A stretch of 64,000 nucleotides of DNA from Opisthorchis felineus (taxonomy: Eukaryota > Platyhelminthes > Trematoda > Opisthorchiida > Opisthorchiidae). This document shows positions 10,096 to 46,085 of this stretch, in pieces. The notes below the pieces were generated by a model. That model saw only the letters and a list, made by a program, of their open reading frames with translations, did no database searches and was not told where the DNA came from. Numbering within the stretch: position 1 is the stretch's first letter; every line of letters starts with the position of its first letter. The stretch spans positions 544,859 to 608,858 of the forward strand of contig SJOL01006423.1 of the NCBI GenBank assembly GCA_004794785.1. The letters run 5' to 3'. The translations under genes and the position numbers were made by a program.

Positions 10096-10101
10096 ACTCA
10101 C

Positions 10102-12780: not shown

Positions 12781-13000
12781 AGGTTGCTGAAAATTCTTCG
12801 ACAGCCCACGACCGGTTTCGCCCCTATTGGGGCTCATCAGGTAGGCGCAGTCCCCGAGTTTCCGTCAACCTTATGTTCTACTTGAAACCAAATTGCACGA
12901 AATTGGCGAAATACACTCATTTGCAAACAAATATGGTTTTGAATCTTCGCTGAAACATCTTTCAGCCTGTGTAGACTACTTAGGAATGGTAAGAACGTCT
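12781..13000 (+). repeat. HR repeat (hammerhead-bearing), partial copy
   Basis: HR is my label for a dispersed repeat starting near GTTGCTGAAAACTCTTCGACAG and running through a CCCCGAGTTTCCGTCAACCT block and an AAATACACTCATTTGCAAAC block. This copy covers the first two thirds and then diverges. The hammerhead motif (12804-12846) reads on the minus strand, so the functional sense strand of HR is probably minus here. Confidence 0.85.
12804..12846 (-). ncRNA. Hammerhead ribozyme motif, type I, intact core
   Basis: Read on minus: stem I GCCTAC, core CTGATGA, stem II of five base pairs with an AATA loop, core GAA, a self-complementary stem III (ACCGGT), unpaired C at position 17, then GTGGGC closing stem I (six pairs, one of them G-U). 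Every invariant hammerhead base is present. Stem III has no room for a loop in one molecule, as in minimal hammerheads of Penelope-like elements and retrozymes, which are thought to act as dimers. Predicted cleavage lies between 12810 and 12809. Confidence 0.75.
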
Positions 13001-15584
13001 CAGATAGGCAGTTGTAGAAACCCACACAGGATCTGATAAGTACCACCACAGCCGGTGTGATGGTTGATAGTTCACTGGAATAGGTATGGGTTATCAATAT
13101 ATCCACTGGTCTTAACAATGTTAACTTTATCCGAGAATCGACTTCTGCCTAGACCAGTGAAAAAGGATTGGTTTATGTTGAGGTTGGTTTGAAACTTATT
13201 ACAGTAAACAATGGAATTGTTTGCCGAACCAACTATGCCTTGAAAGTTGACAAACAGCTGATGTCGAAGCCACATTGTCGGCCGGTACTCGTGTCAGGTA
13301 AATAGGATCAACGCAGAACTAACCGCTGGGTATTCGTCTACAGCAAGACTGAGAAGACACTAGTTATGATGTCCACATGGACAGTAATAGTGAGAGATTC
13401 GAGCTTGAACGACGTATTGCATTGCTTATAGGGTTAAGAGGGATTCCAAATGGTCTAGTCACATATGTTTACATTATAGGTGGGTTCACGCATCGCTGCA
13501 TTGAAAGGATAACCAACACTAGGAAGGAAAGTATCTTTAACAGTCCTCCGGATGAATTAACCATGAAGACCACCTATCATTTGTCATTTTCTGTCAAAGT
13601 GCAATATAATTTACCGTCACTTAAAATCTGGATGAAAAAACCTACATAAGCTGAAAATTCCTATTTAATTGCGAATATCTTTTGAAACGTCCCAAGATGT
13701 GTTGCGAAACCTGCTTTTTGTTTGTTCCTTTATTTTCTCCTTTTGGTTTCAGGAACTATTTAGCTTGTAGTTACAAGAACACTTCGATGCTGATATGGTG
13801 GCAAGTTTTCCATGTATTTGTTGTCAACCTCATTCTGCCTTGAAAATCATCCATCAAGGTGTTACCAATAAGGTCACAGTCTGTTCCGTGTAGTCCACAT
13901 GGGAGCCACCTGACGACTGGCTGTGCTAGTATGTGAGGTATTCTGAGCAGCTGCAGATCTGAACACACTGCTTCCGTAAAGTGCATTCTAATAAGACACC
14001 GAATAAAACTCTGTTGCGGCCGTTATTTGACCGCGATTTCGTGAAAATGTTTGTCTAGGTTCAACCGGAACAAGCCACTTTTAATTAAACGTACATGAGA
14101 CTTCCCTAATAACGGAGAAGCATATTTATACTTTGAGTACATGTCTGCATAATCCCAAAGTTATTTAGTGAAGCCATTTTTCGTTTCTTCCGGATATAAT
14201 CTTCCCCTTAGTAGACTTAAGGGTGGCCACTGCGGGTCCCACAATCTGGAGTTTCACACGTTGATGCAACATTTGAAAGCAACATGATAGACACGTAGTG
14301 CTGTTAGTAGGTGTAATCCTGGAAACGGAATGGGCTATTACTTTCTCCGAAAATATATTGAATCGTCACAGGCACTTCGTTATGTTGTTTTAGTAGCTAC
14401 AGTGGTCATGAGGTGCTCTATTCGGTGATGAATGTATTATCTACATATCGCCGATAAAATGCATATCTATATCCAATAGTGATCACGGACGAGCCGAAGC
14501 TGATAGTACAGACCAAAGAGGTGCAATGAGTGACAGAGCTGATTTTCAACTCCGGCTTGTTACTCGGGTTGAGGCTTCTGTTGTTCAGGTGGTCAGGTGG
14601 TCAGGTGGTCAGCCTGTATTGTTCAACATTCAGGTGACATGTTGGTTTGACCAATATTCCCTTAACCATTGGTTGATCCTGGGCGAACTGCAACCTTTGG
14701 TCCCAAGGGTCTCACTCTGTGACATGTAAAGACGTGAATCCGGGGAGGAAGAACCTGTTTTTCTTGGATTGTTGACCTGACAATCGCTCATACATGAGTT
14801 CTTCGATTGAGTCATTCCTCTAGGGCGAGCGATGTCCGTATATCCTATCGTCTTCGTTCGTAGTCTTATGGAGTCAGCATCTACCTTTCTGAAGTTTTCC
14901 TCATATCCCTGACCGCAGCGCTGCTCCTATAAGGTTTAGGAAAAACCTGAGTTCTCTGTTGACTACATTTTTCTTTGCGGAATAGCGTCAAGATTCAATA
15001 CCTTATACAGCTCTTATCCCGCCGAAAGAGTTGCTGTTTTCATCAGGGAATGCTGTGGAGTTAGCTTACTCTATCCGATGAGTCATTTACTTATTTTGTG
15101 GAAAGTAACTACGATTGTATGATGTAGTGTAAGCTTGGTTACGGAAATTCACCAACTAGTCACAAACTTGCCGTATTTCTCTTCATGTACACGTCAGATG
15201 GCGTTTTAGGAAACTGAGGTAAGAGGCTAAGCCCTGTTATCCTACAAACACATCAGACCATCTCGTTGAGAAACTCAATGATCAACTTATTTTCTAGGTG
15301 ACTGTGTTCGGTAGCTGCACGACCGACGCCTACTGAGGGATCAGACGAAGTGCCCTGACAGTACAGTGGTGGGTGGGGTATTCCCTTCGTGGCCTGCGCC
15401 ACCCAGTGTATTTTCTTCGACTTTTGCCGCTTCACTGTCATTCTATGTTACTGAAGTACTCGCCCGTTTTGATTTAACGAGCGAATGGGTTTGAGACGGT
15501 AATATCACCTAACTAACCTTGCTTAAGATTTGATCATTACTAAATTTTAATAAAACTAGGCTTACGTCCGAAAAACAAAGTATT
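13001..15584. other. No gene recognised
   Basis: Only short frames are present, plus the minisatellite at 14584-14612. No splice-bounded exon was found. Confidence 0.5.
14584..14612 (+). repeat. Short minisatellite, 9-bp unit
   Basis: About three consecutive GGTCAGGTG units are present. Confidence 0.85.
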
Positions 15585-16005
15585 ATTCGACAAATACACT
15601 CATTTGCATACCAGTTTCGTTTTCGCTGGAGAATCACCTGAAACACAACTGAATCTCTTGCTCATGATGTTTTTCTTCAAAGATTAGCACAGTGTCATCT
15701 ATGCACTCTATATCAGCAAGATTCTCGCCAGTAACCGTCTGAACACCGGATTTTTTTATGATCTTCTAGCGTTTGTCTCATTACTTCATCAGTACTTCAG
15801 TTGAACAAGAAGTTGAACAGGTTTCTAGGAGAGAGCCACCTGAAACCTAGCTGAGTCACTCGTTTATGATATCATTCAATTCCGTCCAATTTGGGTTCAG
15901 AAAGAACATAAGGTTGACGGAAACTCCGGGACTGCGTCTACTTGATGAGCCCAAGAAGGGCGCAACCGGTCTTCGACTGTCGAAGAGATTTCAGCAACTT
16001 AGCGA
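15585..16005. repeat. HR repeat, opposed partial copies
   Basis: Pieces at 15585-15690 and 15820-15880 run in + orientation (ACACTCATTTGCAT, CACCTGAAAC and TCGTTTATGATAT blocks). The piece at 15880-16005 runs in the opposite sense, from CCAATTTGGGTTCAG to CTTCGACTGTCGAAGAG and TTTCAGCAACTT. The minus-oriented part carries the ribozyme remnant at 15936-15977. Confidence 0.75.
15936..15977 (+). ncRNA. Hammerhead remnant in HR copy, core mutated
   Basis: TTGATGA replaces CTGATGA, GCA replaces GAA, and the closing stem I strand is altered. Stem II (GCCC/GGGC) and the ACCGGT stem III remain. It is probably inactive. Confidence 0.6.
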
Positions 16006-19000
16006 GTAGTATGTTACGTCTATATAAAGTGTGTTATTGCTATGAAAATTTACCTAGTAGTGTGGTGTTGGTCAGAATGACCTTCCTTCTCGCTGGAACG
16101 ATACTTATCGAAGGATAGCTGGGGCCATCTGTGAGGGTAGCATACATATTCCCATGGATTCTGAGTGTTCAACTTCTTTTTTTTCGAGAATTTCTGTGCA
16201 CATATTAATGGTGAGGCAATGAACAGCTGGTCGGCTCCCCCGTATGGCTGCTCAGAATGGTGTGAACTTGGGTTAGCACAATGCGCCAACCTTAGTGTGT
16301 GTGATCGATGTTGGGCAAGTTGGAAGCACGACCTTAATCCAAACAAGCACGAAATGACTTCAGTACTGACCAAATATCCGAAAAAACCCTCACCCATTAT
16401 TCCATAACGTTTCGTGGTGAGCGATGGCATCCAATCCAATCGTCGAGCTGTCAAATCGAAAGTTAGTATCTAATGTTTCCAAATGAACCAGACACACTGT
16501 TACCCAATGATATTTTACTTTTCATCCTGAGAACTTGTTGCGCTTTCCAAACATGTCTAAATTGTTCGTGAAGTCACAGCCACTTGACGAACCCTCCGGC
16601 CTAAGTGTTCAGTCTGTTTATCAATTGCATTCTTTGCATCTACATCAGCTTCGCTCCAATAATTCCATAACTGAGATGGTGACAGCAGAAAGCACATGGG
16701 AACAGCGTTATAAACTATTGATCACCGGAATATGAATAACCTTAGGCTTGTTGTGATACGGACTTTCAAGTGGCAATAGAGCGGTCTAGCTTAATGGACG
16801 TGCCGCCAGTACATCTTAGGCTGACCGTTCCAGTAGTGTCCAATTTAGAGTACTTCCAAGGAGGGAGCAAAATAGGGAAGTCCATAGTAGTTTGCATTAC
16901 GGTAAAAATGCCTCCGGAAGATGTGCTTCTCCTGCATAGCTCAGTGGATGGTGAGGATGCACAAGCCACCAACCGCGGTAAGATCTCGTCTCTTCGAGAC
17001 AATCTGGAACCCCATCACACTAGTCATATGTGTTTTGCGTGGAAGAATTCGTATTTTGCAATGCTCGTTAACAAGTGACAGCGTGATAGGAATCGAGTGA
17101 CCGAAGAATGAATGGCATCATATCCCGTATGAGTGAGTTAATCACCCTCGTGGCCCGAACTACTAGCCTCAAAACTGATTTCAAATCACTCGGAAGATTC
17201 GTGATATGCGCACTAATGATGATTTCAAACATGGAACAAACCGAAATAGAAGGCTCTTCGTATTTCCAGCCTAGATCTGCATTACTCTCTGCAGATTTTG
17301 TATTTTCACCTGATTTTCTGCGCACTTGCTAAAGAACTGAACGCCCCATCTCTTAAACATAACCATGCTTTTGCGAAAAAAAATGATGACAGTATCATTC
17401 GTTTTGTCAAATATACCAATACATGACAAAAACAGCCAATGACACAAACGCACAGAAAGTGAACTGGAGATTCGAATACTGTTCACCTCTTGGGTACCTG
17501 AAAAGTTGTGAGTTTTTTAGGGAAACAATTTTTGGATCTCCGGAAAGTTTTTGACGCTTCATAGATGGCTTTATTGGTAATATGGCACTTCAGAGAATAT
17601 AAACTGTTGATACTATGCTAGTTGATCAAACTACTCATCAGACATCTGCAGTCGAATGACTAGTCTCCATCTAAGAACTGAGTATTCGACTATCGATGCC
17701 TTTTCCAACAGTCCAAAGTACTAAATTATGAGCTTCTACACCCATCCATCCCTTGAAATACTTAGACGAGTATATTCTGCATACAGGTAAATCTCAGTAG
17801 TGACAGAGGCCAAATTTCCCCATTGATTAATGTGAACATCTGCCTATTGCATTCATACTTTGCGCGATTGAGTTTTTTGTGTAGTCTAGGTTTTATTGTT
17901 CGGTTTTAGTATTTTCTGGCTTGGATGACTACGTGGGGCCTCTATGGATTCGTGTGTATATCTATGTATATCGCCCCTTTCATTTAACTGTCCTTTTTCC
18001 AGCTCAAATTTAAAAAGCTCAGAGAGATTCAAGGCATTTTGATTTGAAAAGCAATCTTTCAATGTTCTGATCCGACCTTCTCAGCAGTGAACAACCTCCG
18101 TCTTTCCAGGGTTTGAATTCAGGGTGGCTGACGTGCGGGGCTACTGTTACCGCTATTCCACCAGCATATGCTGGACTCAACTGAATGTGAATTCTACAAA
18201 TCTCGCAATCACCTACAGCTCATCAAAAAATTGTCCAGCTTGTTTCAAGCATTCGTGGCGCTAATCGGCCTATCAATACGGTACCAATATTTTTCGGCCC
18301 GCAGTTATTTCGGTTGCATGCGTTGGCGTCCTTGTACATTTCGACCAAAGAAGCTTATTCTTGAAACGTGATTACCCGGTGACGTTTTTGACCTGATTGT
18401 ATTCATTGTTTATATTACACTTAAAGGCCAGAAACAAGAACGGCTTCAGGTAGCCGAGCCCTGTTGAGCATAAACGTTACTGCTAAGAGCAATTATGATA
18501 GTTCATACTCTTCATTAGTGGCTACACAAGGGAGGGTTTCATGGTTTTCACTATTAGCTGTCAGTGTGTTTTTATATGAAATTACAAACTAGACAAGCAG
18601 TTCGTATCATGTGAGCTGTGGCTTAATTGTTTCGTTTAGAAAGCCTTCCACTGCAAAAGATTGTTTTCATCCGATTCCTTTTTGATCGCGACTTCACCGG
18701 AACAGTGTGTCGAATGTTCTTTTCGACGAGGACCGTAGTTTTTAGAGGGACAAAAACGGAACATTTCCCACATCTGCTGATTACAGACAGGAAATGGCGA
18801 CCACAGGGCACGCATGGAGTTGATGTACAGTCCGGTACACTAGCAGACTGTTTGCCTGTCATCTAGGCCATTAGGGTACACACTTTGTTGGAAGACGAGA
18901 TTCAGGTCAGAACGAAAAACAAAAACATTTGTTTGAAGGTGTGTGCTTATATTACAACGAAATTATGACTACTGAGAGCTCGCCAAGTAATATGTCGTCG

Positions 19001-21269
19001 CTGTTGCCAAATCTTTCCGTCATGCTTCACTAGCCTTACTTGATATCACAGCTGCTGCAGGTTCAGAGACGCTCCGTTTTCACTACCGATCAAGCTAAAT
19101 AGATTATTTCCAGCGCAGATGTTGATTCGACAGAATGTCGTCGACCTCGATCGGTTTTGGGATGAGCAGATTTTGCAGCCAGATTGTCTACTCTGTGGTT
19201 TTGTGAGGCTTGTTCATTACGACTGTTGTAGTTAAGGGTATTTCCTAAGAAAAATGTCAGTTTTTCATATTGAGAGTCCCTCGAGAGCTTGCATACAGAG
19301 GCGATTCATAAGAGGATATCTTTCGCTGACTTTATTCCCCACGATTATGATTCACTCATGTAGTGCGAAGTGCTCAGGAGATGCCCCAATGCTTTAAACC
19401 TGTGCAGTTCCATTGATATGTCACAGAATAGTCTCCATTGCTCCATCTGCATTGTTCCATCTGCATTGGGTCTAGCAACTTTGACTTGGCCCTCGACTAG
19501 CATAGAGAAGCTGATATTGATTTCTCTCAAAAGAACGGTTCTGCGTTCACCTGTCTCCTCTACATGGCTGATGTTTCTGAATTTTGCTCAGCTTGTAACA
19601 ATGCAGACCTCAAATATCCTCTCAGCCACAGAATCAACCACTGGAGACCCTAAATTTGGTAGTGCCCAGGATAATTGTATATAACACTAATCTTGACGGT
19701 TCGGGCACCCTAATGCCTTTCACGCACCTCGAAGAACTATTGCAAGTTCGCTCCTCTGACAAACGCCTTTTCCGTCCCAACTTTCCAGGGCCATCCCTGT
19801 AGTAGAATACAACTAAATTATAAATGCTCTAGCGTATCCTTTGCTGCAATTCCACCGTCTCGCTTGTTCAACAAAACAAAGTGGGACTGATTTCTAGCCA
19901 TCCAGACCGAGTGAATTCTCGATGAGCAATTGTAGGTGTGTAATGAAGTGCAGCTCGATGCCATGATGATTGAGCGGTGGTGTGATGGCTACTCGACGGA
20001 ACTGTTTTTTAATCCACAAATGGTCAAGACAAGATAGGACGTTCAGGGGCTTGTGAACATGTACGTACTGCACTAGGTCCCAAAGAAAGATGTAAAAAGA
20101 CAATGAAACAAACAGCTTTTTGAAGAGGAAGGCACAGGCAATGGACCATAAGTGATAAACTGTTTCTTTGTGTGACCTGAAGAAAAACAGGAGATCTGTA
20201 GACCTTGTTATGTGCTTGGATTACTAATATAAAAGCAGGTGTGCTGGCAATTATTGTTTCCAGTTTCTTATAGTTGGGATAGAAGTTTTTTTGAAGACTA
20301 TATTCTTGTTGAACTGAATTTCGATCAAAGTAGTATATCGAAGAAGGAAAAAATCACGTAGTTCCTGAGGGTGTTTCTTATAAGGAGGGTGTAGTTTACC
20401 ACAAGGATAGATCAATAAAGGGATTTGAACTCATCCTCGAATTACCGGTGATGGCTTACTAAATATGTGGGTAGTGTATTGTCTACTTATGAAAAAAAAA
20501 AACAAGAATGTTGAAGTATCCAGACCGTCGTTTCATTGTGGATTTATAGAGATAAAGAAGACTAGTATGGCTGATCGCCGTTTTGTTATGAATGCTTCGG
20601 TTGGTTGAGCTCAATCCATTGAAATAATGAATCTTTCTAGACAAAGAAACATATCCATGTGTGTTCTATATGTTCAGTTGAACACAAAACTGTCAGTTAT
20701 GATTCTGTGTCGGAAAAAGTGGTTGCAGAATCACAGACGTTTAAAAATAAAGCCAGACCGGCCTTTGTGGTCGTCAAATCTTCTAAACTGATAAGCCATA
20801 ACAATGAGGGTGATGTTTTTCACAGAACGTTTGCCCTGAAGCCATGTCTGGATTATTTGATGGGAATGGTTTGCTGTATGTGTGCGTGATAGTGTCAAAC
20901 GAGACGTCAGGAAGAAAAAGCCAGGTTGGTTTAGCAAACAATGATAGATAAAATTCGTTTCATGACAACATTTCGAAAGCGGAGGTGATAGGTTCGGCAA
21001 TCCCGCAATATTTAGTCTGGTTGCTTTGGGCGTGTTTGAAGCACGATCTGAAATAGAATATCCCGCTGAATCACATGTATCGTGTAGACTAAGGTGGAAC
21101 TCTGGGTCCGGCACATACCTCCAAACGTAAGCCTCCATAAACAGTGTTCTCTTAACCGTTGAGGAAAACGCGTGTCATACAACCGGTAACGCTCAGTGGG
21201 ACTGACAAACAATTACAGGTGTGGCAGGCACAAGTAGTGTAGTCGTCAGCCAGTCAGCACATGACGGCG
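16006..21269. other. Gene-poor stretch with frames on both strands, none supported
   Basis: Several overlapping frames are open on both strands near 16535-16735, 16766-17078, 17068-17332, 18623-18866 and 19345-19530. Two look somewhat protein-like: the + frame at 16535-16735, ending TWEQRYKLLITGI, and the - frame at 19345-19530, containing MQMEQWRLFCDISMELHRF. None has a clear acceptor-donor pair or a recognised motif. A B-box-like element (GAGTTCAAATCCC on minus, near 20425) hints at another tRNA-derived repeat. Confidence 0.4.
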
Positions 21270-21545
21270 GGATGGGGCTTCCCTGACTGAAGGATGAGCG
21301 TGCCGTATCCTACCTACGTACGAGTTATTATGCCGATCAGCTACTCGTAGCCGAAAGGTTCGGTGTTCAGATTACTAGCCGGGAGGCTGCGGGTTCGAAA
21401 CTCCGTGGAGTTTTGTGACATGCGCATTCATCCCAATGAGGATGGAACAGATATACAGTGGTTTTGGGCGTCTCACTATAGATCGGCTTCACCTTCACGT
21501 TGAAATCTCAATTGAAAATTCCAATATCTCACCGTGCTACTAACA
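21270..21545 (+). mobile_element. SINE family A, tRNA-headed copy
   Basis: The family order is a leading block (CTGACTGAAGGATGAGCG, then GTATCCTACCTAC), a tRNA-like part with B box GGGTTCGAAACTCC, a hammerhead-like stretch and a tail ending AATTCCAATATCTCACC. In this copy the hammerhead CTGATGAG octamer has been lost, going straight from GCGCATTCA to TCCCAATGAGGATG. Confidence 0.8.
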
Positions 21546-22604
21546 ACTCTTACTGTATCCGGTTTTTCATGGGTGATAGAGATGAATTCGAGGGGATGAA
21601 TCAGACGTTTAAAGGCAATGGATGTGGGTTTTAAAGCTATCAGATGGCTTGTAGTTAATGTGCCGGCTATCCAGTCAGCCTTGTGAATATTCACTAAAAA
21701 ATGTGGTTTTGGACTCGACCGTTTTAGTTCTCTTTTCCAGATTGGGTAGTAAACTGGAAAGGGTAGCCATTTTTCATCAGTACTCCGGAATGTTATCGAG
21801 ATTTTTGTCCTCACGAGAAACCAGGCCTTCCTTCTCCCAATTTCTGCTTTAGTGTAGTTAGCTCAGTATTATTACATTTTTTTCCTATGTGTGACCTGTG
21901 CCGTCATAAATGTAATTATCCAGACACGTGTTCGCCGACCGTTTGATGTTACGATAACTCAGATTTTCAATAATATTTAAGGTAAACAACTGACCTACAT
22001 GCTGTGTTGACGCGCACGGATGAGCCGCATAGTTACTCAGTGTCATCCACACTGAGTAGTCATTTAACTGAGAGATGACGGTTTTTCACCATTCTTGATT
22101 GGTGTCAGTGAGCACCGAAAGAATAGAATGGTGTGAATGTGTACACAAACGGGTATCAGTTTGAAAATCCTCATGGCTTGTCCGATGGCTGACGAAGGTA
22201 AGATATTCAAATACAGTTGTTTTATCGTTCCGACTGTCCACGGAATTTGATAGACTGCAATGCCTCGATTTTCTAGGGGTTTGTTGATCCGTCCTCGAAA
22301 GCCAGTTTGTGTTGATGGGGATGCGTACTAATTCCAGGCCAGCCTGCACTTTACACAGAGATGCCCTTTAGACCTGCGAGAAAGTCTTTACTGATTGCTG
22401 GGTCCTCGCAAAATTTAGAATACGTAGATTCCGATGGCTACGCGGACTAATAGAAACTGCGGTCAAGTAAATCGGTGGCCAAAAAATGTTCTGTGGTCCT
22501 GTGGTGACTGATAGTGAGGCGAATTTGTCGTTTTTTGGATCGCTGTATGATTTTCAACCAGAAAAGTGCACGTTACTTAGGTGAAGAAAACTACTCACAA
22601 AGTT

Positions 22605-22945
22605 GCTGAAAACTCTTCGACAGCCCACGACCGGCTTCGCCCGTCTTGGGACTCATCAGGTGGGCACAGTCCCCGAGTTTTCGTCAACCTTACGTCATAT
22701 TTGAACCGAAATTGCACAAATTTTGACAAATACCAGTCGTGGACTGTCGAAGAGTATTCGGCACCCTTGTGAGCAGTTTCCCTCATGAAAATATCCTGCA
22801 TTATCTCGAATATCGTACCAGCTGAAACATGAGGTGGCCTTTGTGCAACACACTCGGTCGAAGAATACCATAAACGAGATAAACATTTGGGATTCAGTTG
22901 GGTCTTTCTTAAAAAAAACAAATTGGAGTGAAAATGAGTGAATTT
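22605..22945. repeat. HR repeat, head-to-head pair
   Basis: Bases 22605-22738 match the start of HR in + orientation. From about 22735 a second copy runs in the opposite sense through GTTTCCCTCATGAAAATATCCTG, ATCTCGAATATCGTACCAGC, CATAAACGAGATAAACA and AAATGAGTGA. The junction falls at GACTGTCGAAGAGT. Frames on both strands across it come from this inverted structure and are not genes. Confidence 0.85.
22623..22665 (-). ncRNA. Hammerhead ribozyme motif in HR copy, near-intact
   Basis: Stem I is perfect (GCCCAC/GTGGGC), CTGATGA and GAA are conserved, and stem II is GTCC/GGGC with one G-U pair. The one departure is A to G at position 15.1 (stem III reads GCCGGT), leaving a G-U next to the cleavage site. 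Compared with 12804-12846, the stem I change T to C restores a Watson-Crick pair. Confidence 0.65.
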
Positions 22946-27927: not shown

Positions 27928-27933
27928 AATAAA
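27928..27933 (+). promoter_or_regulatory. Candidate polyadenylation signal (AATAAA)
   Basis: This is the first canonical hexamer I see after the receptor stop, 585 bases downstream. That gives a plausible 3' UTR length. It is not proven. Confidence 0.35.
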
Positions 27934-30029
27934 AAGTATTATTAGTATTCACATTGTTGATAACAATAGGGTGACGAAAGGGACCTGGATGCAATGAACG
28001 AATTGCGGACAGTTTTGGTCTTTGGGTACTTCCGAACGATTTAGCATACATATGCCATACCCCAAAAGCGAAAGCCCTCAAGAAATCGAAGACTGCTGGT
28101 TTCAAGGTGTTTGTTTTTAGAGAAAAATCAAAATGAATGTGCGTAGTTTGTTTACCTGGATACCAGTCCAAAGCTGCTGGCCTGTGTTTTCATTCTTACG
28201 CATCTATGAATTGCACATCCTTAATTCGCTGTGCCGAATCCAAAGAGACCTAACCTCAGTTGACCTACGGGTCCAAATGAATTGAATGTCTGCAGTATTA
28301 GTTTATTTCGTACATTAACTCTTGGTAATTTACTTACGGTTGTGGATGTTTAAAGTTTCATCTAGTTAATGGTTTTGGGTGGATGGGCGTGGTTTGCCGT
28401 TAGCTCGGATTTCGGTTACTAACTTTCTAGTAACCAACGGTAGGTGTCTTTCTGGTCAAAGGCTTTGACGAATACCGCAGAATGCCTTCTTTGGAAGCAG
28501 CATAATTTGGTAGCATGAGGTACTGCTTGCTTGCACGTTTATACCAAAATGAAATTGAGGACTTACCGGATCGAAACCTTACTTGCTTTTCGGCTGCGAA
28601 AAGTTTGTGTAGACGGGACCACCATTTGAGTGCACTCTCAAAAGTTGGGAGAAGTGATCGCAATATGACAGGTTGCATATTGCTCTACAAGTTGGGCAAA
28701 CATAAGTTTGATATTCCCCTCCAGCTCCCTAACCAAACGTTCCCTTCAGTGAACAATCTTGCCATCGCGAAAGTCTGTATTTCATTTTCTACTGGTTTAC
28801 TCTGCTTTAAACAGCATGTACCTGTCAGTGTATACGTTCGCGGTCCTTTAGCTTCTTTGTGCCCTTCCACTAAAACGCACAGGTGTGAGATTTACGGTGA
28901 GTGACAACTTTTCGTGGAGCTGACGCGACAGAAATAGAGGTTCTGTCATTTCACAGGTCGAATAAATGACGGGAGCTGCGCTCAGCCGCAAAAGGAAAAT
29001 CAACTGCAATGTGCTGTATCGTTTTGGATGAATAGATATCGGTTAATCTTAAAATGCGGTGAGGATCAGAGGTGGCACCGCCAGTCCCTCGTGTGGCGGT
29101 TTTTCCATACTTATCTGTTAGGCTGACGTTATAAATGGTTGTTGTTGACTGTTGGATTTCTCTAGAATGGATTGGTCACCGTGAGAGAAATTTTATCACT
29201 GAACCATGTTATCCATATGGTTTCTTAGATGGATTTTTTCGGGAGTTGATGATTTGGCGGTTGATCTGCTCACAGAACCTGGCAACTGACTTACCGGTCA
29301 ATTAAAGGTCCAGTACCAAGCTCAGCAAACAGACCAGTAGCCATATAAGCAACTACCACTAAGTGCAACCAAGCTAAGAGTGAAAGAAGGGAATCCCTTC
29401 GCCGCGAATTCGGTTATTAGCAAACACAAACTAAACAGTTACAAACTATTGGATAGGAAAGTAAATATCTCATATGCACATAATTTTTAAAAACTGAATA
29501 TTCACACGCATCTTCTTGAACTTTCGCGGACTATCACGCAATTGTAAACGAACGCTGCAAAGCAGTCCCACAAGTTCCGTAAGAAACCGCACCTTTCATT
29601 AGACGCGGGGCGGAGCTTCGAGAGAAACACATGGTACTAGCATGTGCCACCACTAGTATCCGCCGTTACACCAGTATCCAAAAATTGCCCAGTGGACTCC
29701 CCTTGTAGTGGTTTGCTCGGCGTTCATAGTGGATAAGCTGGCATTGCCAAGGTGGAAGCTTTTTTAAAAAAATTTCATGCTCTACTTCCTGCGTCGTACC
29801 GTAGTGCACGTGACTGAAAACATGACGGTTGTGCAAGAAAGTTCTCAAAAAAGAGGATACATCGATCTTTCAACAAGGAAGTTGCTTCGGTCTAGTCACC
29901 ATGACATTCCAAGGAATAATGAATCAGACAGCAACTGTGACAACAAACCTTTTCAGCCTGGGTGGAGGGAAGGAGAGTATAACAGTTAGGCTGCTGTTCA
30001 ACTGCTCCAAGCTAGACTGTTAATTATTC
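27934..30029. other. Mostly unrecognised; one weak exon candidate
   Basis: The + strand frame at 28515-28895 stays open for 127 codons and stops just after a GTGAGTG donor. The last part is listed separately. No repeat family member was identified here. Confidence 0.4.
28816..28895 (+). CDS. Weak exon candidate
   Basis: A pyrimidine-rich CTGCTTTAAACAG acceptor precedes an open stretch reading HVPVSVYVRGPLASLCPSTK. It ends at TTTACG|GTGAGTG. Signals fit an exon of about 80 bases, but the peptide is short and unrecognised. The antisense strand is also open. Confidence 0.25.
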
Positions 30030-30200
30030 AACAACTGTGCAGATGGTTGCGGGCTCGAAAGCTCGTAAAGTTTCGTAAGATGCGCACTGCTGATGAGTCC
30101 CAGTAAGGATGAAGCAACTATACTGTGTTTCTCAGCTTTCCAGCGTAGATTGGTCTCACTGACAAGGATAAGATACTACAAAATATCCTCACATTACCAT
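30030..30200 (+). mobile_element. SINE family A, 5'-truncated copy
   Basis: The copy starts near the tRNA-like B-box region (GCGGGCTCGAAAG). It keeps GTTTCGTAAGATGCGCACTG, the hammerhead-like core and the CAGCTTTCCAGCG segment. The tail ends near CTACAAAATATCCTCAC. Confidence 0.75.
30085..30127 (+). ncRNA. Hammerhead-like motif in SINE A, stem III decayed
   Basis: CACTG, CTGATGA, stem II G-TCC/GGA-T, and GAA are in order. Stem III (GCAACTAT) is no longer self-complementary and the closing strand CTGTG mismatches stem I. It is probably inactive. Confidence 0.6.
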
Positions 30201-33969: not shown

Positions 33970-34800
33970 CTACACTCATTTGTGAATTAATTTGGCTGAA
34001 TCCAGCTGAATCTGTCACTCATACCATAGCTCTTCGACTGAGTGTGCTGTGCCATGCCGCCTCATGTTTCAGTTGGTACGATATTCCAGATAACACAGTA
34101 TCTTTTCTTAGCCGAATCGCACGCATAAGTTTGCTGAAAGCTGTTCGACAGCCACGACCGTTTTCGTCCTTCTTTAGGTTCATCAGGTAAACACAGTCCC
34201 CGAGTTTCCGTCATCCTCTCTGTCAGGAAGGCCAAATTCCTGAATGTAATCCCGGAATACCCGAAACCTACTGAGACCCTCAAACTCTACCAGAATCTCA
34301 ATGGGAAAGCCGGCGAGCATCCAGGCCAATCAACCAAGCAAGTAATTTAGCAAACGCTTACGTGTGTTCAGGCACGCCACAGAAGCACGACCGACTACGA
34401 TAAGCGCTCAGGAAATTCATAGAAGCACGGTCGATGATAATAGGTGTTCGTTAAACGCCAATCAGACAGTCTGGATCAGTGTCAACTAACCTTTATATAG
34501 CGCGAAGCCCTTTGTAACTTTTGGTCTCGCTTGTTCGCAATAAAGCTGTTTTGTTCCTTGTTGGCGGGTACTTTTCCGGCACTAAGACACTGGAGAGGGG
34601 ACAGCATTAGATACAACAATTTCGTTCTGCTAAAGCCCATAGTTTACACAACTGGTGGAGTATATTCCTTTGCAAACTACTTTGGTTTTAGGGGGAATCT
34701 CTAGTTTATGGTATTTTTCAACTGAGTGTGCTGTACAAATACCACGTCATTTCTCAGTTGACACGATGTTCGTGGTGTCGCTGAAAGAACTACTACGATG
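33970..34800 (+). repeat. HR repeat, two units in tandem, split by an LTR
   Basis: The 3' part of one unit (CACTCATTTGTGAAT through GTTTCAGTTGGTACGATATT) runs directly into the start of the next (GTTTGCTGAAAGCTGTTCGACAG ... CCCCGAGTTTCCGTCA). Homology stops at about 34210 and resumes near 34618 (TTCGTTCTG, then CCTTTGCAAACTACTTTGG, GTTTATGGTATTTTTCAAC and GAGTGTGCTG). The 34221-34603 insertion therefore occurred after this HR copy was in place. The ribozyme region (on minus, about 34152-34192) is mutated. Confidence 0.8.
34221..34603 (+). mobile_element. Probable solo LTR
   Basis: This 383-bp block starts TGTCAGGAAGG and ends GGGGACA, giving TGT...ACA ends. It has a TATATAG box at 34493-34499 and AATAAA at 34539-34544, the promoter and polyadenylation order typical of an LTR. 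Two imperfect copies of an AGAAGCACG(A/G)(C/T)CGA unit lie at about 34381 and 34421. HR sequence on both sides shows that no internal retrotransposon remains. No matching target-site duplication is visible, so the exact ends are uncertain. It may belong to a gypsy- or BEL-type element (inference). Confidence 0.65.
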
Positions 34801-38639: not shown

Positions 38640-38890
38640 AATTCATGGTGGGTGAATAAACAAGGATTCGGCGCACGATTTAGAGCTTCGTAGTCGGAAT
38701 CGTTTACAAACGCTCATGCTGATTATCCGAAAGCTTCTCCTGGTCACATTCACAACAGCATAGTGTGAGCAAAGCTAACCTCGACGAGATCTCTTCGTCT
38801 GGCTCAAAAATACACGCAGTGCTGATGAGCTCAAACAAGAACAAAACTCGAGTTTAGTGCTTCCAGCCTTTGGTATGAATTCACCAGATT
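38640..38890 (+). mobile_element. SINE family B, degenerate copy
   Basis: It shares with 42085-42280 the hammerhead region and the following CTTTGGTATGAATTCACCAG segment. The tRNA-like head is badly decayed, so the left end is a guess. Confidence 0.6.
38817..38859 (+). ncRNA. Hammerhead remnant in SINE B
   Basis: CTGATGA and the ACTCGAGT stem III are intact, but GAA has become AAA and stem I (CAGTG/TAGTG) no longer pairs. It is probably inactive. Confidence 0.65.
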
Positions 38891-39619
38891 AATTGTGCTA
38901 GGTCAGAAGAAGGAATGTTCGAACGGAAGTTGAATTGGACATGAGTGTATACATTAATATGGTAGATATAAACTAACTCCAGTAGGTGTCGGGATAAATG
39001 GACGTAAAAATCGACAGTGAACGGTCAGAATGTTCCTCAGAACTGGTGTTGGGAAGTCAGGTGGGTTTGAGATGTGGTTTTATGGCACAAGAGCGCCAGC
39101 GCCTTTACCTGGGATTCCTAAATTCATAGGTGAGATGTTTATAAAGTTGTGTGCTAGTGTTTTTGGTAGTGACAAATGCCATTAAACCCTACTAGAACTT
39201 TGTAAATAGATTCAAAGATTTGGTCGTATATCCGGCGTTGTTAGTTGGACTGAAATCAAACCGTTGATAGGACGCGGTTGTCCTTTGGAAAACTCAGACA
39301 ACTGTCTTGTTGTTCCACCGATATATCCGTCTTCTCAGGAGCATATGAACTACCAAAAGCAAATAGGAGTGGTCTGACAAGAAAACCTTCATATGTTCCT
39401 TGTTGAGAAAGCGAGTTGTAAGGCCGAATCTGAACTCGGCCCAAGTGGAAGTGCTGTTGAATGTTTTATAAATCTTTGGACGAGAACTTCTTTTTATGGG
39501 TCATTTTTGATAGGCATGCTTTGGTCCAAAGGTATTCGAGGCAAAATGCATGTAGCATATTTGAGAGGTCCGGTTTGCAAGTGCTTATCAAGAATTCTTC
39601 CATGGTGAGTGTACTCAAT

Positions 39620-39760: not shown

Positions 39761-42084
39761 GGACCTTTCAAAGGAGTGACGTGAACGTAATTTTTACAAA
39801 TCTCGCAAACAACCACAACTAAAGTTTATAGGGTATTGTTGTTCCTGCGCCAGGCTGTCTTCTGAACGCACCGAGTTCTGTTTGACCCTCAGTAGAACAA
39901 AGCCCTTAAGCGCGCATACTCTCCAGTCCATATTGGCTGACGGTACACGCTTCGTCGACAATAGCAAACGTGTGTTCAGGTTAATGATACACAAAGAAGA
40001 GACAGCTGGTTTTCCACAACCTAGTTAAATAGATTCGTCTGTCTAAAAGTTGTTAAAATAGATATCTGATTAAAATAAATAGTAGTACACTAAAGAAAAG
40101 AATTACCGATATATCTACCGTAAAAGCCATCGTTGGCTTTCTTGCCAACCAAAATGGAGTTCCAAAGTTTGAATATAAACTGACGGGTAATTAGCGAACC
40201 AAACAACTATAATCAACAAGTTAACCGGCTCATATGTAGCAAACCAATCCCAAAAAACGTCAAGTGTCCCATTATTTATGGGTGTTCCTTTCACCAAGAT
40301 GGTTAGTTCATAAACACTTTCAAATGGCGGAAAGAGACGATTTCTACTTATTGGACAAGGTGCTTAATGGGAGGATAACACCTCAACTGATACAATGCAA
40401 AGACTGATGTAACCGAGGATAACGTCGCGCTGAAAGAGAATTTGTATCTCACTTCAACTGGTAGTCCCCTCTTGGTAATCCGTACATACGCCGTTCAGGA
40501 AATAAAGGGATAAATAAGATATTTTATAAAGGAACATAGAAGCCCCTATCTTAATTTAGCTTGATCGTTTATGCTCAGGTTTCACTGGTTAAACTAACAC
40601 TTTTCACATGCAGGCCAATGTAAGAATCCTTGCAAAAAGACAGGTTTTCACAATGTATTCTTTACCTAGGGATGCGATACTGACGGCCGTTATTCAGCTT
40701 TTACATGGCCGCAGGTAGTTTCTGCTTCGAAGGTTATCCGAATATGATCACGCCCTGTTTCAGTAAACTTCAACTTCAAATATGGATATACTCTAGACGT
40801 AACACTACTCATGAGATTACTGAAAACTCTCTCTTGTGTGAGCTGGGTCACATGTCTTAGAGGAGGGTGAAGATACCACCATGGAGTATGACGCCCACGG
40901 TTGTTGTGGGGAAACCGTGGCAACGAAAATTCTGTTTTTTTTGTAGCTGTGGTCAAATGTGCAAGTCTTCCAACTTGCTGATGATCTCAGAGAAGTGACA
41001 GATCTCTGAATAGTGGCGAGTCTGATGGCATGCCCTGAAGTCAAGGTCACTTAGCAGTTATCAGGATGTATAATCTGCACAAAATATACTTCCTAGCACA
41101 TTACGTGCGACACAGACAATAATGTGTGAATCATAAGACTACCTCATGGAGGGCAAAGCAGTTTGTGAGCATTTAATTTAACCGTTCTTTTACTGTCTTC
41201 TGTCTGAAGAGAGCAAAGGAAATGTTAGCATGTCATAACTTATGTTACCTTTCAGTTCTAACTAGACAGATAAAGGGGACACGATATTTCAAACTTTATA
41301 AGTGGTAATATTTCATTTTATTTTCCGTGACTAAGAAATCCACCATAGTCGGATTTAATTTTGGCAAGTGAGGAGATTTTACACATAAAGGTCAGAATTG
41401 ATTTTGGCCTCTAACTTTCTTCGCTTCCCCTGCACATACTTTTTTCCTTTAAAATTATTAATTTGAAGATGATTTTAGTCCATCAGTCTTTGGTCCCTTG
41501 GTTTCACACCTCGAACCATGCCCTCCTAAGAATCTGACTGTCTAATCTAATCCCATGGCGTTTTATCCTTTTTGCTCACTCAGTGTTTAGGATTCCGATA
41601 TAAGTTGATTGGTCAATGGACTGTGTTGTGACCTGTAGTCCGTGAACTTTGGTTTTGTGTTTTCATCCGCTAATCCAAGTGTGCCATAGGAAGCATTCCA
41701 AGATCACGGTGTAAATCCTTTGAAGCAGGAGGTTTGCACACATTATGATAGTCAGTAAGCAATGAACTTAAGGTCAGAATGTCAGAATGACAGGAATGGG
41801 CTAAAATCTACAGCAATTAAAATATTCCTTTGGCGTGGGCTTACAAGTATGACTGCGCCAAGATAAGAGAACGATTGTTCAAACGAGAGTTATGTATTCT
41901 ACAAAATCCTGCAACCACCAACACTTGAAACAAACTGTGCCCAGCAGGTTTCAAGCGTCTGTGGCGCTGACTGGGAAGTCTTGACTGGCGGGCCAATCGA
42001 TCAATACAACCAAGATATGTTACTGAGTAGTCGTTCGAATCGTCGGGCTTTCCGCTCCCATCACTCAAGCTCGAACATGTTTAC

Positions 42085-42280
42085 CTGTTCAGACGTGAAA
42101 ATTCGGGTGAATCAGGCGCTCGCTGATGCAGTAGTGGCAACACGCTCGCCTCGGATGTCAGATGTGCGGAGTTCAAACCCCGGCACGGCCCTTGGATATG
42201 CACTGCTGATGAGCTCTAATAAGAGCGAAACTCGAGTCCAGTGGTTCCCCACTTTGGTGTGGTGCCTAAAATGTCAGTAA
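42085..42280 (+). mobile_element. SINE family B, best copy
   Basis: The tRNA-like head (CAGTAGTGGCAACACGCTCGCCT, then GAGTTCAAACCCCGGCAC as B box) resembles tRNA-Ala and matches the minus-strand head at 52258-52332. It is followed directly by an intact hammerhead motif and a CCCACTTTGGTGTGGTGCC segment, and ends near TGTCAGTAAAC. The order of head, ribozyme and short tail is like the schistosome Sm-alpha repeats (family knowledge). Confidence 0.8.
42201..42243 (+). ncRNA. Hammerhead ribozyme motif, type I, intact core
   Basis: Stem I is CACTG/CAGTG, followed by core CTGATGA, stem II GCTCT/AGAGC with an AATA loop, core GAA and a self-complementary stem III (ACTCGAGT). Then come C at position 17 and the closing stem I strand. 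All invariant bases are present and every stem pairs without mismatch. Predicted cleavage falls between 42238 and 42239. Stem III would be stable mainly between two copies, as in dimer-acting minimal hammerheads. Confidence 0.8.
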
Positions 42281-43216: not shown

Positions 43217-43279
43217 GTGAACTTAGTTTGGGAGGCAAAGGTTTCTACTGAAGCTTTAAACTCTTGTTGCCAAAAGAAG
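43217..43279 (+). CDS. Probable internal exon, unidentified
   Basis: Twenty-one open codons (VNLVWEAKVSTEALNSCCQK plus K) lie between a TTTTCGGATTTTCAG acceptor and a GTAAGTAATC donor, phase 0 at both ends. The next candidate exon at 43661 needs two incoming bases for its long frame, so the two do not join directly in that frame. Joined in phase 0, the second exon would end after 21 more codons at 43724. The two may be consecutive exons of one gene with that short end, or a small exon may be missing between them. Confidence 0.45.
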
Positions 43280-43660
43280 GTAAGTAATCTGACCAGAGAA
43301 GGAAGTAATCTCACGTCACACAGGCTTCCATCCTTGAATTTAACCTTCCTAGGCCCAGTCGAGGGCCAGTCGAGTTGCGCAAACCGTATGGTTTAAGGTT
43401 GGTGCCTTTGTGCGAGCTAATCACGTTTGGTACATTTTTTGTTTGTTTATGAAACAAGATATCGCTAGTTTAAGCTGCCGGAAGTTCGTAACATATGCTT
43501 TTCAGGAGGGTTAGGCATGGAGAGGAGGTTGCCAAGTGTTTCCGGCCATCGAACAATAACCACCATTGCTATAATAAGTTGTTGCGCAAAAGGCTAGTAA
43601 ACACCAGATAAACTGGTATTAACTTTGTGGCCAAAGTGTGCAGTTCTAATTTCATTTCAG

Positions 43661-44042
43661 CCTGACGGAATGGCAAACAATCTCCGTTGTCGTGTTCCTC
43701 AAAATCCAGCCCTTCTTAGACAGTAATGGATTTTTAGAAAGCATAGAGCTTGCGGTATATGGGCCGAAAATGGTGTGGAAAAAATGTGTTGAGTCTGCCT
43801 GGAAGAGGCTTAAAGGTCGACACACAATTGACTGCTGCTCGCTTTTGAAGAAATATATCGCCAGACTAGATCCAGCTTTACCCACATGGATTACTTCGCC
43901 TCCACTGGCTTGTCATTTCCTACTTTTATCGCCAGTAGTCCCAAAACTTAACACAAAGGTGAAGTGTCGCGCAAGCAGCAGTCACTTTGCCATCTCAATT
44001 TTCAAGCTCACTGTTCTGCTGCCTGATTTATTCAGCAAGACG
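43661..44042 (+). CDS. Probable exon, unidentified protein (127 codons)
   Basis: The strong acceptor TTCTAATTTCATTTCAG and the donor ACG|GTATGT bound a frame open end to end (codons from 43662). It begins LTEWQTISVVVFLKIQPFLD. The middle contains WKKCVESAWKRLKGRH and LLKKYIARLDPALPTWI, and the end is LTVLLPDLFSKT. The alternation of hydrophobic helices and basic stretches suggests a soluble helical-repeat type protein (inference). I do not recognise the family. The antisense frame is open only in part. Confidence 0.5.
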
Positions 44043-44082
44043 GTATGTGTACGAGTAGTGCGTAATATTAATATGTACTAAT

Positions 44083-44200
44083 AACGGTATGATCACATAT
44101 AATACACTATAAGATAATGAAATATAATATAATATATAATACACATAATACACATATAGCAATATATAATATATAATGTATATTAGGTTATACAATGATA
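44083..44200. repeat. AT-rich simple sequence (TATAATA/ACATAATAC type)
   Basis: About 110 bases consist almost only of A and T with interspersed C. A minus frame through it (Tyr/Ile/Leu only) is an artefact of composition. Confidence 0.85.
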
Positions 44201-45446
44201 ATATGGCCAACCGTCCGTCGACCTTCGGGCTTTTTCCAGGCGGACTCACACAAACAAGGCGTGGAACCATAGTTTGTTGTGAAGGCATTTAGATCACGTG
44301 CCTTAGCTACTTTGACTGTTGTAGAAAGATTATGCTGTTGTGTTATTGGACTTCTGTTCCAAACGCTCGGTGATCTACCCCATCATCAATGTCATGGGTT
44401 TGAACAAAATGAGGACAGCGGCTGTCGAGGAGTTCAGTTTCCTGAAATTAACTCAAAGGAGCCAGGTTCGCAGAAGTAGAATACCACTATTCTAACTGTA
44501 GCATGGTATACCCCGCCCCCTAGAGATATGCGGGTAGAATGCATTATAGAGGAGAATACCATTGACTCAGATTGTCTACTGGTGGTCAAATGGTTCGCTG
44601 AGCTTGGTGCTTTTGCCCTTCCCTTGGTATAACTCCACCGACTGGATACAGGCTAGGGTATCTGACTTTGAAAGTCAGCCTAGCCAGAAGTTGAAGTGCC
44701 CAATTCACCTCTCCAGGTAAAGTTGAAGGGTATGTGTTAACAAGCCAATCGTGACTCGGACTGATTTACTGACCCTGAGCGATCTAATTAGGATCGTGTG
44801 TTAGATGAAGCGTTTTATGAGGAAATCATGTTATTATTTCGGCAACACGCTTTTCCCCCCACTTTTTATGTTCTGATTTGAGACGTTCCGTTAAATCTCG
44901 CCCAAGTAAAATACAAGGTACGCTATGCTCCTTAATGCCTGGCACCGTTGGGAAGTTTCGACAGGTTCGAGGGAACTTGTTAACGGGCCGGTGAGTCAAG
45001 CCGTAGCTATTGCAGCCAACAGAAATCATGGCATTTCTGTGAATCGGTATGACTTTTATCTGTGAATCGTCGCGGAGTGGCAAGCATGATAGCCACTTTA
45101 CTTTCTGGATACACTCGGACTCGACAAAGTTTTTGGATTCGGCTTGGCGGGAAATTTCTTGTTAGACCTAGTGAAGGCACAAAAAGTCTGGCTGAAGCCA
45201 ATGTATGGCTGGAAACAACACAACCAAACAAATATGATGTCTTGAAAATGTCCTAGTCATCCACTAACAACCACGATGCAATCTGAGTCCATCAACGGAT
45301 CGGGGAGGACGAGTCTCCACCTGTCGACCACCTCATACAGTTTTTGATACTTGCACTGGTGAGTTTAAGCTGATGGTTGAAAGAGGAGCTTAGAATTCAG
45401 AGTTCGCCCTGTAAGCAAAGTCACTGTATGCTGGAAAGCCGAGAAT

Positions 45447-45665
45447 AACTGCACGGTTCTTTCATCCTTATTAGGTATCATCAGCAGTGTGCACCTCACG
45501 AAACTCCACGGAGTTCCGAACCAGCGACTTCCCGGCTAGTAGTTCGGACACTTAGCCGTTCGGCCACGAGCGGCTGAACAGCACTGTGATTCTTACACCT
45601 ACACATGACGAATGTGCCACTCAGTCCTCAGTCACCGAAACCGCATCACGTGGTCACGACTGACC
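45447..45665 (-). mobile_element. SINE family A, minus-strand copy
   Basis: On minus it reads the leading block (GGTGACTGAGGACTGAGTGG), the tRNA-like head with A box GTGGCCGAACGGCTAAGTG, B box GGTTCGGAACTCC, then CACTGCTGATGA. This is the clearest tRNA-like head of the family. The hammerhead-like stretch at 45447-45489 has G at the cleavage position and a broken stem III. Confidence 0.8.
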
Positions 45666-45899
45666 GGCCCCTCGAGTGACGAGTTCTCCTCACATTACCA
45701 AAAGTCTATACTCAGCTCACCAAAGCACTAATTCCACCAGACGAGTGAAACTTCCCTCTGTGAAGTCGCCAAGCGAGGAGCCAGTCGACACGTGCTAACG
45801 TAATATGTATTCCAGGAGTAAAGGATGAGTGGTGCAATATCTTAAATGTTAACTAATCGCACTTCTGATCGGCCGCACTTAGCCGATCGATTAAATGTT

Positions 45900-46085
45900 T
45901 AAACTACAAGCCGGGACATCGCGGGTTCAAAACTTCCTGGGGTTTCATGATTTGCGCGCTGCTGATTATTCTCAATGAGGATGAAAGAACTGTACAGTGA
46001 TTCTCGGTTCTTCAGTATAAACGAGCTCCACTTAGAGGACGAAATCCCAGTTGAGTAATTCCAAATACTTCTCACACTACCAACG
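45900..46085 (+). mobile_element. SINE family A, 5'-truncated copy
   Basis: It starts at the B-box side (TCGCGGGTTCAAAACTTCC) and reaches the full tail (GACGAAATCCCAGTTGAGTAA, TTCCAAATACTTCTCAC). The hammerhead-like motif at 45956-45998 has CTGATTA instead of CTGATGA but keeps GAA, a pairing stem I and ACTGTACAGTG. Confidence 0.8.

What the first reader, a model, noticed from the sequence alone, without database searches (positions are those of the whole stretch)
12804..45998. Three repeat families with the same minimal hammerhead architecture
HR, SINE A and SINE B each place CTGATGA, a 14-base stem II, GAA, a 6-8-base palindromic stem III, one unpaired base and a 5-6-bp stem I in the same order. 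Their surrounding sequences are unrelated. This suggests either ribozyme capture by different retroelements or a common non-autonomous mobilisation system.
Basis: partly seen in the sequence, partly recalled or inferred. Interest (0 to 1): 0.9.

Follow-up and report, generated by a model that had tools for sequence, protein, structure and literature searches.

The report
Ribozyme repeats moved by Penelope elements
Three kinds of short mobile repeat in a liver-fluke genome carry the same folded self-cutting RNA, and the way their copies sit in the genome suggests that all three are copied by the enzyme of another mobile element, Penelope, rather than by the enzymes usually assumed for such repeats.

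Summary
Three repeat families of this opisthorchiid fluke carry one type I hammerhead design: HR 7,107, SINE A 934, SINE B 723 copies within 3 mismatches; reversed-pattern controls 0. Across the three consensuses 47 of 48 stem cells pair, 9 of 16 pairs change on both sides, and flanks are unrelated. Corrections: the ribozyme is not minimal, and SINE A's consensus breaks pair 10.1/11.1, so it is probably weak.

A common mobilisation system fits best. Adjacent copies are head-to-head 51 times, tail-to-tail twice. Their outer ends fall on two preferred sites; classifiable pairs use one of each in HR 15 of 15, A 10 of 15, B 2 of 4; 17 pairs are unclassifiable. Repeats of 8-13 bp flank 11 of 33 (cross-controls 6 of 404). 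Two Penelope-like element (PLE) copies, one in the window (9413-10107), share this build, as do published PLEs. HR looks like a promoterless retrozyme; A and B like pol III SINEs; all probably copied by PLE machinery. Ribozyme SINEs and a PLE role for retrozymes were proposed before; insertion anatomy as evidence, and PLE-dependent SINEs, I did not find in print. Cleavage, RNA circles and trans-mobilisation were not tested.

The parts
12804..12846 (-). HR hammerhead, all counted pairs formed; predicted cleavage between 12810 and 12809
   Evidence: I 6/6, II 4/4, III 3/3; Rfam HH9 E 2.4e-4
12771..12941 (-). HR copy, unit phase 176 to 39 (phase 1 = first base after the predicted cut)
   Evidence: 97% identity to the 307-bp unit
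22623..22665 (-). HR hammerhead, all counted pairs formed (some G-T)
   Evidence: Rfam HH9 E 4.6e-3
22590..22945 (.). HR head-to-head pair (minus piece then plus piece), outer ends phase 39 and 208
34150..34192 (-). HR hammerhead, decayed (II 2/4)
34037..34217 (-). HR copy
15829..16024 (.). HR head-to-head pair, core mutated (CTTGATGA)
48088..48313 (.). HR head-to-head pair without ribozyme, outer ends phase 53 and 214
53418..54148 (.). HR head-to-head pair, diverged (about 68-70% identity), outer ends phase 37 and 210
30084..30128 (+). SINE A hammerhead, stem III decayed
29991..30164 (+). SINE A copy
45446..45490 (-). SINE A hammerhead, decayed
45956..46000 (+). SINE A hammerhead, core mutated (CTGATTA)
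45399..46084 (.). SINE A head-to-head pair (45399-45686 minus, 45762-46084 plus); outer ends at site 1 and site 2
21248..21530 (+). SINE A copy with the ribozyme core deleted
42200..42244 (+). SINE B hammerhead, one stem I pair missing; Rfam HH9 E 2.9e-6
41947..42262 (+). SINE B copy with its tRNA-like head upstream of the ribozyme
38816..38925 (+). SINE B copy; hammerhead 38816-38860 with GAA mutated to AAA
39664..39819 (+). SINE B copy, core mutated, reaching the 3' tail
9425..10095 (.). Penelope-like element remnant: head-to-head arms 9425-9557 (minus) and 9920-10052 (plus), 98% complementary; extra 43 nt (10053-10095) at the right end only
9413..9424 (+). left copy of the 12-bp target-site duplication ACTCACCTCCCT
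10096..10107 (+). right copy of the 12-bp target-site duplication ACTCACCTCCCT

Best explanation
HR, SINE A and SINE B are three non-autonomous retroelement families that share a folded type I hammerhead domain and are inserted by the machinery of Penelope-like elements (PLEs) living in the same genome. HR is a promoterless retrozyme with a 307- or 293-bp unit, singly or in tandem. A and B are SINEs with tRNA-type pol III boxes just upstream of the ribozyme. Inferred mechanism: the RNA is bound by a PLE reverse transcriptase-GIY-YIG protein; both strands of a staggered target cut are extended on element RNA, one from each of two start sites downstream of the ribozyme; the two incomplete cDNAs meet head-to-head and a duplication of about 8-13 bp is left. 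Shown: ribozyme consensus and between-family covariation, two preferred end sites, head-to-head pairing, target-site duplications in a third of the pairs tested, the same build in two PLE copies, abundance of one PLE 3' end. Inferred: that PLE protein acts on them in trans, two-strand priming, pol III transcription, and that in HR the ribozyme cuts multimers into units that may circularise.
For: Orientation: neighbouring pieces within 100 bp are minus-then-plus 51 times (A 21, B 7, HR 23) and plus-then-minus twice. In the place lists, read by eye (100 places each), neighbours within 600 bp are minus-then-plus 13 times, never plus-then-minus; 3 of the 13 are also. Ends: A ends at site 1 (consensus 286-308) 37 times or site 2 (314 on) 34 times of 90; B 11 and 17 of 40; HR phase 20-75 42 times or 198-225 27 times of 92 (windows set after seeing the data). 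Pairs with both ends classed use one of each: HR 15 of 15 (p 1.5e-5), A 10 of 15 (p 0.15), B 2 of 4; together 27 of 34 (p 4e-4). TSD-like repeats of at least 8 bp: HR 6 of 15, A 3 of 14, B 2 of 4; cross-pair controls 0 of 210, 6 of 182, 0 of 12. A and B tails between the sites are A+C-rich, 0.78 and 0.87. The window PLE copy has head-to-head arms, a 43-nt extension on one end only and a 12-bp TSD; PLE copy L100, with RVT_1 and GIY-YIG, has an inverted 59-nt 3' piece, 29 nt between it and one 12-bp TSD copy, and none at the other end. One PLE 3' end occurs 2,294 times, control 0. Published PLEs: inverted pLTRs, head-to-head most frequent, a 31-bp tail at one of them, 8-10-bp TSDs (PMC3846280, passages); two internal RT start sites, both target strands cut and extended, ribozyme mutants still insert (PMC11167929, parts 1-2 of 4). 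A and B: A+B box score 15 of 16, reached by 0 of 200 shuffles.
Against: No family shares recognised sequence with the two PLE ends I read, apart from short or chance-level hits, so the partner PLE is not identified. The one-of-each rule is clear only in HR; in A 5 of 15 break it (one, L092, lies in a 442-nt inverted repeat that also takes in flanking DNA). HR's two sites lie about 160 nt apart, not 30-45 as in A, B and PLEs, and the fold does not bring them together. 22 of 33 pairs show no TSD of 8 bp; some counted repeats lie 12-23 nt from the mapped end, and one B row (L063) was drawn across two pieces. Only two PLE copies were examined. LINE 3' ends were not compared. For the PLE family of the window only the GIY-YIG part was seen, in L098 and L101. 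SINE A's broken 10.1/11.1 pair suggests that self-cleavage is not needed.
Confidence: 0.7

Rival explanations
1. Ordinary LINE-dependent SINEs (A, B): a LINE reverse transcriptase copies them, and the inverted pairs are twin-priming products as described for L1.
For: A and B have pol III boxes, TSDs and 5' truncations. Reviews define SINEs as mobilised by LINEs (abstract starts of PMC7245038 and PMC8010984 in listing). Non-LTR-type RT fragments (YADD) lie in the window.
Against: From recall of twin priming, the outer end of the inverted piece should be a random internal position; here both outer ends fall on the same two sites in 34 of 51 pairs. One consistent build is shared with a promoterless family (HR) and with PLE copies. 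LINE 3' ends were not compared.
Confidence: 0.15
2. PLE machinery, but inverted pairs arise by self-priming on an antisense template rather than by priming from both target strands.
For: Proposed for A. vaga Penelope from palindromes at inverted junctions (PMC3846280, passage).
Against: Self-priming does not by itself predict that the two outer ends use different start sites (HR 15 of 15 classifiable). In vitro both strands are extended (PMC11167929). Junction palindromes were not examined here.
Confidence: 0.2
3. HR is DNA-level satellite, amplified by unequal crossing-over, and not a retroelement.
For: Eleven units of exactly 307 bp, all ten complete units identical; in the list same-strand neighbours are spaced 307 (12 intervals) or 293 (9 intervals).
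Against: Most copies are dispersed, truncated and head-to-head with fixed outer ends, and 6 of 15 pairs show TSD-like repeats.
Confidence: 0.08
4. The hammerhead-cut linear monomer is itself the main template, so that 5' ends of copies should sit at the cut site.
For: The two HR ribozymes that are intact in the window and the HR and B consensuses fold as hammerheads.
Against: 5' starts within 5 nt of the predicted cut: A 2 of 90, B 1 of 40, HR 3 of 92, about what a uniform spread gives; HR has another 5' peak, 14 of 92 at phase 128-132.
Confidence: 0.1

Closest known systems
SMalpha (S. mansoni) and Sjalpha (S. japonicum) SINE-like retroposons with a hammerhead
   Same: Trematode, SINE-like, type I hammerhead (mentions and a cited title in PMC8490949, passages).
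   Different: Sequence relation not tested here; their mobiliser was not stated in the passages I saw. The original papers were not held (Ferbeyre 1998) or not sought (Laha 2000).
Metazoan non-LTR retrozymes
   Same: HR: type I hammerhead, tandem units of 293/307 bp, no pol III boxes found, strongly self-paired as a circle (MFE -100.0 against -77.7 +/- 4.8 for shuffles). PLEs were already called a strong candidate mobiliser (PMC7229834, Discussion).
   Different: The Cells 2020 review says the repeats show no motif that would reveal the mobiliser (PMC7761336, passage); here insertion anatomy points to PLEs. A and B carry pol III boxes.
Penelope-like elements and their pseudo-LTR hammerheads
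   Same: Head-to-head insertion, two end sites, TSD; ribozyme upstream of the 3' end.
   Different: HR, A and B are short with no RT or EN found; their ribozymes have a 6/8-nt stem III palindrome and an extended stem I, whereas PLE ribozymes are described as minimal.
Rfam Hammerhead_HH9 (RF02275)
   Same: Best Rfam match of all three families.
   Different: Every hit is below the gathering score of 52 bits (best 40.4).

Membership tests
type I hammerhead ribozyme | core CUGANGA / GAA / NUH with three stems | tested here: met
   consensus of all three; SINE A lacks the 10.1/11.1 pair
type I hammerhead ribozyme | covariation of the stems | tested here: met
   between families 9 of 16 pairs change on both sides, 47 of 48 cells paired; within families mostly none beyond shuffles; exceptions A stem I (24 of 500 reach it) and A outer helix (0 of 500)
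type I hammerhead ribozyme | self-cleavage | not testable with these tools
   needs RNA
metazoan retrozyme (HR) | tandem units of 150-450 bp with the hammerhead | tested here: met
   307 and 293 bp
metazoan retrozyme (HR) | no promoter | tested here: met
   A+B box score 12 of 16, reached by 172 of 200 shuffles; other promoter types not tested
metazoan retrozyme (HR) | accumulates as circular RNA | not testable with these tools
   no RNA reads
tRNA-type SINE (A, B) | internal pol III A and B boxes | tested here: met
   15 of 16 each, 0 of 200 shuffles; Rfam tRNA on the B head only 15.2 bits, below gathering, none on the A head
tRNA-type SINE (A, B) | 3' end shared with a partner LINE | not tested
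   LINE ends were not collected
PLE-type insertion | head-to-head copies with both 3' ends outward | tested here: met
   51 against 2
PLE-type insertion | two end sites, the longer tail on one of the two ends | tested here: met
   HR 15 of 15, A 10 of 15, B 2 of 4 classifiable pairs; 17 of 51 unclassifiable; clear only in HR
PLE-type insertion | TSD of about 8-12 bp | tested here: inconclusive
   11 of 33 against 6 of 404 in controls; 22 of 33 lack it
PLE-type insertion | 30-45-nt distance between the two sites | tested here: inconclusive
   about 30 nt in A and B, 43 and 29 nt in two PLE copies, about 160 nt in HR
Penelope-like element proper | encodes RT and GIY-YIG | tested here: not met
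   units of 307 (HR) and about 385 (A) nt with no such ORF; the families are at most non-autonomous users

The most novel reading that the evidence does not exclude
A class of SINEs with pol III promoters that depend on Penelope-like elements instead of LINEs: each insertion is a two-ended product in which the two target strands are extended from two different start sites on element RNA. The shared hammerhead is a portable module of this class, and the schistosome SMalpha/Sjalpha SINEs would belong to it too. Retrozymes would then be the promoterless, tandem form of the same class.
Probability: 0.5. Interest if true: 0.82.

Novelty: new variant of a known kind. Interest (0 to 1): 0.66.

Why it matters
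Which enzyme moves the hammerhead-bearing repeats of animals has been left open: the 2020 paper names PLEs a strong candidate because the two co-occur (PMC7229834, Discussion). If the anatomy described here is right, the question can be settled from genome sequence, by counting end sites and orientation, in any animal with such repeats. It would also break the rule that SINEs depend on LINEs, and give the PLE two-start-site reaction seen in vitro a large natural data set: thousands of short inserts with both ends readable.

Tried and rejected
Chance or artefact: rejected by the reversed controls. 'Minimal' hammerhead: rejected. Shared ancestry of the flanks: no support; local-alignment scores are reached by 135 to 994 of 1000 shuffles in six comparisons, although A and HR share TTTTCAGCA at a similar distance downstream. 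Cut site as the 5' end of templates: rejected. HR's two end sites adjoining in the circular fold: not supported, median graph distance 45 against 42 for positions equally far apart. HHR motif in the PLE1 3' end (CTGATGATG...): no Rfam hit in L100 at E up to 1, stems not convincing; left open. A CTGACGA...GCGAAACG stretch in the window PLE may be a PLE-type ribozyme; not tested. No homologue of the PLE RT piece among solved structures.

Searches for prior print: (open-licence library only). Seen: PMC7229834 outline, Results part 1 of 3, Discussion; PMC7761336 twelve passages; PMC11167929 parts 1-2 of 4; PMC3846280 ten passages; PMC8490949 twelve passages; other papers only as listings.
Full report
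What was claimed.

Organism. The window is G000:C1002:544859-608858 of a 630-Mb assembly. A 481-aa frame at 25898-27340 is 95% identical to a Clonorchis sinensis protein. I infer an opisthorchiid fluke and name no species.

Is it there? Yes. CTGATGA-N14-GAA occurs 17,487 times in the genome against 1,092 reversed. Of 78 such sites in the 60 regions fetched around the first listed places, 43 are HR (11 in one array), 14 A, 9 B and 12 none. Near-consensus ribozymes: HR 7,107, A 934, B 723, controls 0. In the window, of 8 ribozymes scored 2 HR copies form all counted pairs and one B copy all but one; the three A copies have a decayed stem III.

The ribozyme. In all three consensuses stem I continues beyond a 3-nt/1-nt internal loop: A GAGA-TGC-GCACTG / CAGTGC-T-TCTC, HR GAC-TGC-GCCTAC / GTGGGC-T-GTC, B GGA-TAT-GCACTG / CAGTGC-T-TCC. 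Of 16 homologous pairs 9 change on both sides between families, and 47 of 48 cells pair. The one broken cell is A's 10.1/11.1 (T-T), carried by the 42 exact copies and by 11 of 16 sampled copies. That this weakens cleavage is recalled, not tested. The free fold of A does not give the hammerhead, that of HR and B does. Within families, pairing mostly does not exceed column shuffles; the exceptions are A stem I (24 of 500) and A's outer helix (0 of 500). This fits copies decaying from a master. Flanks outside the ribozyme are no more alike than shuffles.

Three families, two designs. HR: an array of 11 units spaced exactly 307 bp, the ten complete units identical; in the list same-strand neighbours are 307 (12 intervals) or 293 bp (9 intervals) apart. 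It has no pol III boxes beyond chance, and as a circle folds 4.7 standard deviations below shuffles. A and B have an A and a B box just upstream of the ribozyme, 15 of 16 positions each, reached by 0 of 200 shuffles; Rfam's tRNA model sees B's head only weakly and A's not at all. A also occurs in tandem: in 6 of 7 same-orientation neighbours the tail is followed after about 50-59 nt by the start of my consensus, a unit of about 385 nt.

Insertion anatomy. I mapped each family's consensus onto all loci (one HR array locus, L068, left out). Neighbouring pieces within 100 bp are minus-then-plus 51 times (A 21, B 7, HR 23) and plus-then-minus twice (p 3e-13). In the place lists, neighbours within 600 bp are minus-then-plus 13 times (HR 6, A 6, B 1) and never the reverse (read by eye; 3 of the 13 also lie in the mapped loci). 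Outer 3' ends cluster: A 37 and 34 of 90 at two sites about 30 nt apart, B 11 and 17 of 40, HR 42 and 27 of 92 at two phases about 160 nt apart. The windows were set after seeing the data, A and B loci were partly picked for exact cores, and ends beyond my consensuses cannot be seen. Pairs with both ends classed have one end of each kind: HR 15 of 15, A 10 of 15, B 2 of 4; 17 of 51 pairs are not classifiable. HR is significant alone (p 1.5e-5), A is not (p 0.15), together p 4e-4. Flanking repeats of at least 8 bp: HR 6 of 15, A 3 of 14, B 2 of 4, against 0 of 210, 6 of 182 and 0 of 12 cross-pairs. I chose 33 of the 51 pairs for that test, mainly those with classed ends, and extended some across neighbouring pieces (L063, L078, L083). 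5' starts do not gather at the predicted cut: A 2 of 90, B 1 of 40, HR 3 of 92.

The same build in Penelope-like elements. GIY-YIG hits (6, with 150 of 553 candidates scored) led to L099, L100 and L102, where RT (RVT_1, E 6e-6, below its cut-off) and GIY-YIG (E 1.7e-6) stand in order in L100. An RT piece of L099 has 57 relatives, best in Clonorchis and Opisthorchis. Their common 3' end stops at one point and occurs 2,294 times, control 0. L100 carries an inverted 59-nt copy of that end at its other side, with a 12-bp TSD and 29 further nt on that side only. A second group (L098, L101; GIY-YIG only seen) shares its end region with the window itself: 9425-10095 is a head-to-head pair with a 43-nt extension on one end and the TSD ACTCACCTCCCT at 9413-9424 and 10096-10107. 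Published PLEs have inverted pLTRs, mostly head-to-head, a 31-bp tail on one of them and 8-10-bp TSDs (PMC3846280, passages). A purified PLE protein cuts and extends both target strands from two internal start sites and does so with dead ribozymes too (PMC11167929, parts 1-2).

Reading. The three families share one way of insertion, that of PLEs. I infer that PLE protein copies them in trans, with one start site used per target strand. In HR the ribozyme most likely makes unit-length, perhaps circular RNA from tandem transcripts; in A it is probably dispensable now. What speaks against this: the partner PLE is not found, HR's two sites are far apart, A and B obey the one-of-each rule only loosely, and LINE ends were not compared.

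Known or new. Hammerhead SINEs in schistosomes, retrozymes, PLE hammerheads and the idea that PLEs move retrozymes are in print. I found no paper that uses insertion anatomy to show it, nor PLE-dependent pol III SINEs, in the searches, which cover open-licence papers only.

Noticed in passing
window 9413-10107: A Penelope-like element remnant with exact 12-bp TSD, head-to-head arms and a one-sided 43-nt extension; became part of the argument.
   Followed up: yes
L068 (G000:C14:130000-137000): Array of 11 HR ribozymes at exactly 307 bp with identical units, ending at a run of N, so the array may be longer.
   Followed up: partly
HR unit, phase 128-132: 14 of 92 HR pieces start here rather than at the predicted cut; just after a stable hairpin in the fold, perhaps a stop for reverse transcription.
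   Followed up: no
L092 879-1313 and 1462-1903: A 442-nt inverted repeat, 95% alike, reaching beyond the SINE A pair into flanking DNA.
   Followed up: partly
window 25898-27343 (+): Long frame, 95% identical to a Clonorchis sinensis hypothetical protein; a 36% relative is named G protein-coupled receptor.
   Followed up: partly
window 3983-4387 (+) and 56721-57158 (-): Related frames with a YADD motif, probably non-LTR retrotransposon reverse transcriptase fragments (motif recalled).
   Followed up: no
window 9425-9557, sense CTGACGAAGCTTTTGTGTCAAAAGCGAAACG: Possible PLE-type hammerhead core in the window's PLE remnant; genome count never ran.
   Followed up: no
L101 1308-1414: A SINE A-like stretch lies directly upstream of a GIY-YIG frame; insertion or relationship not resolved.
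   Followed up: no
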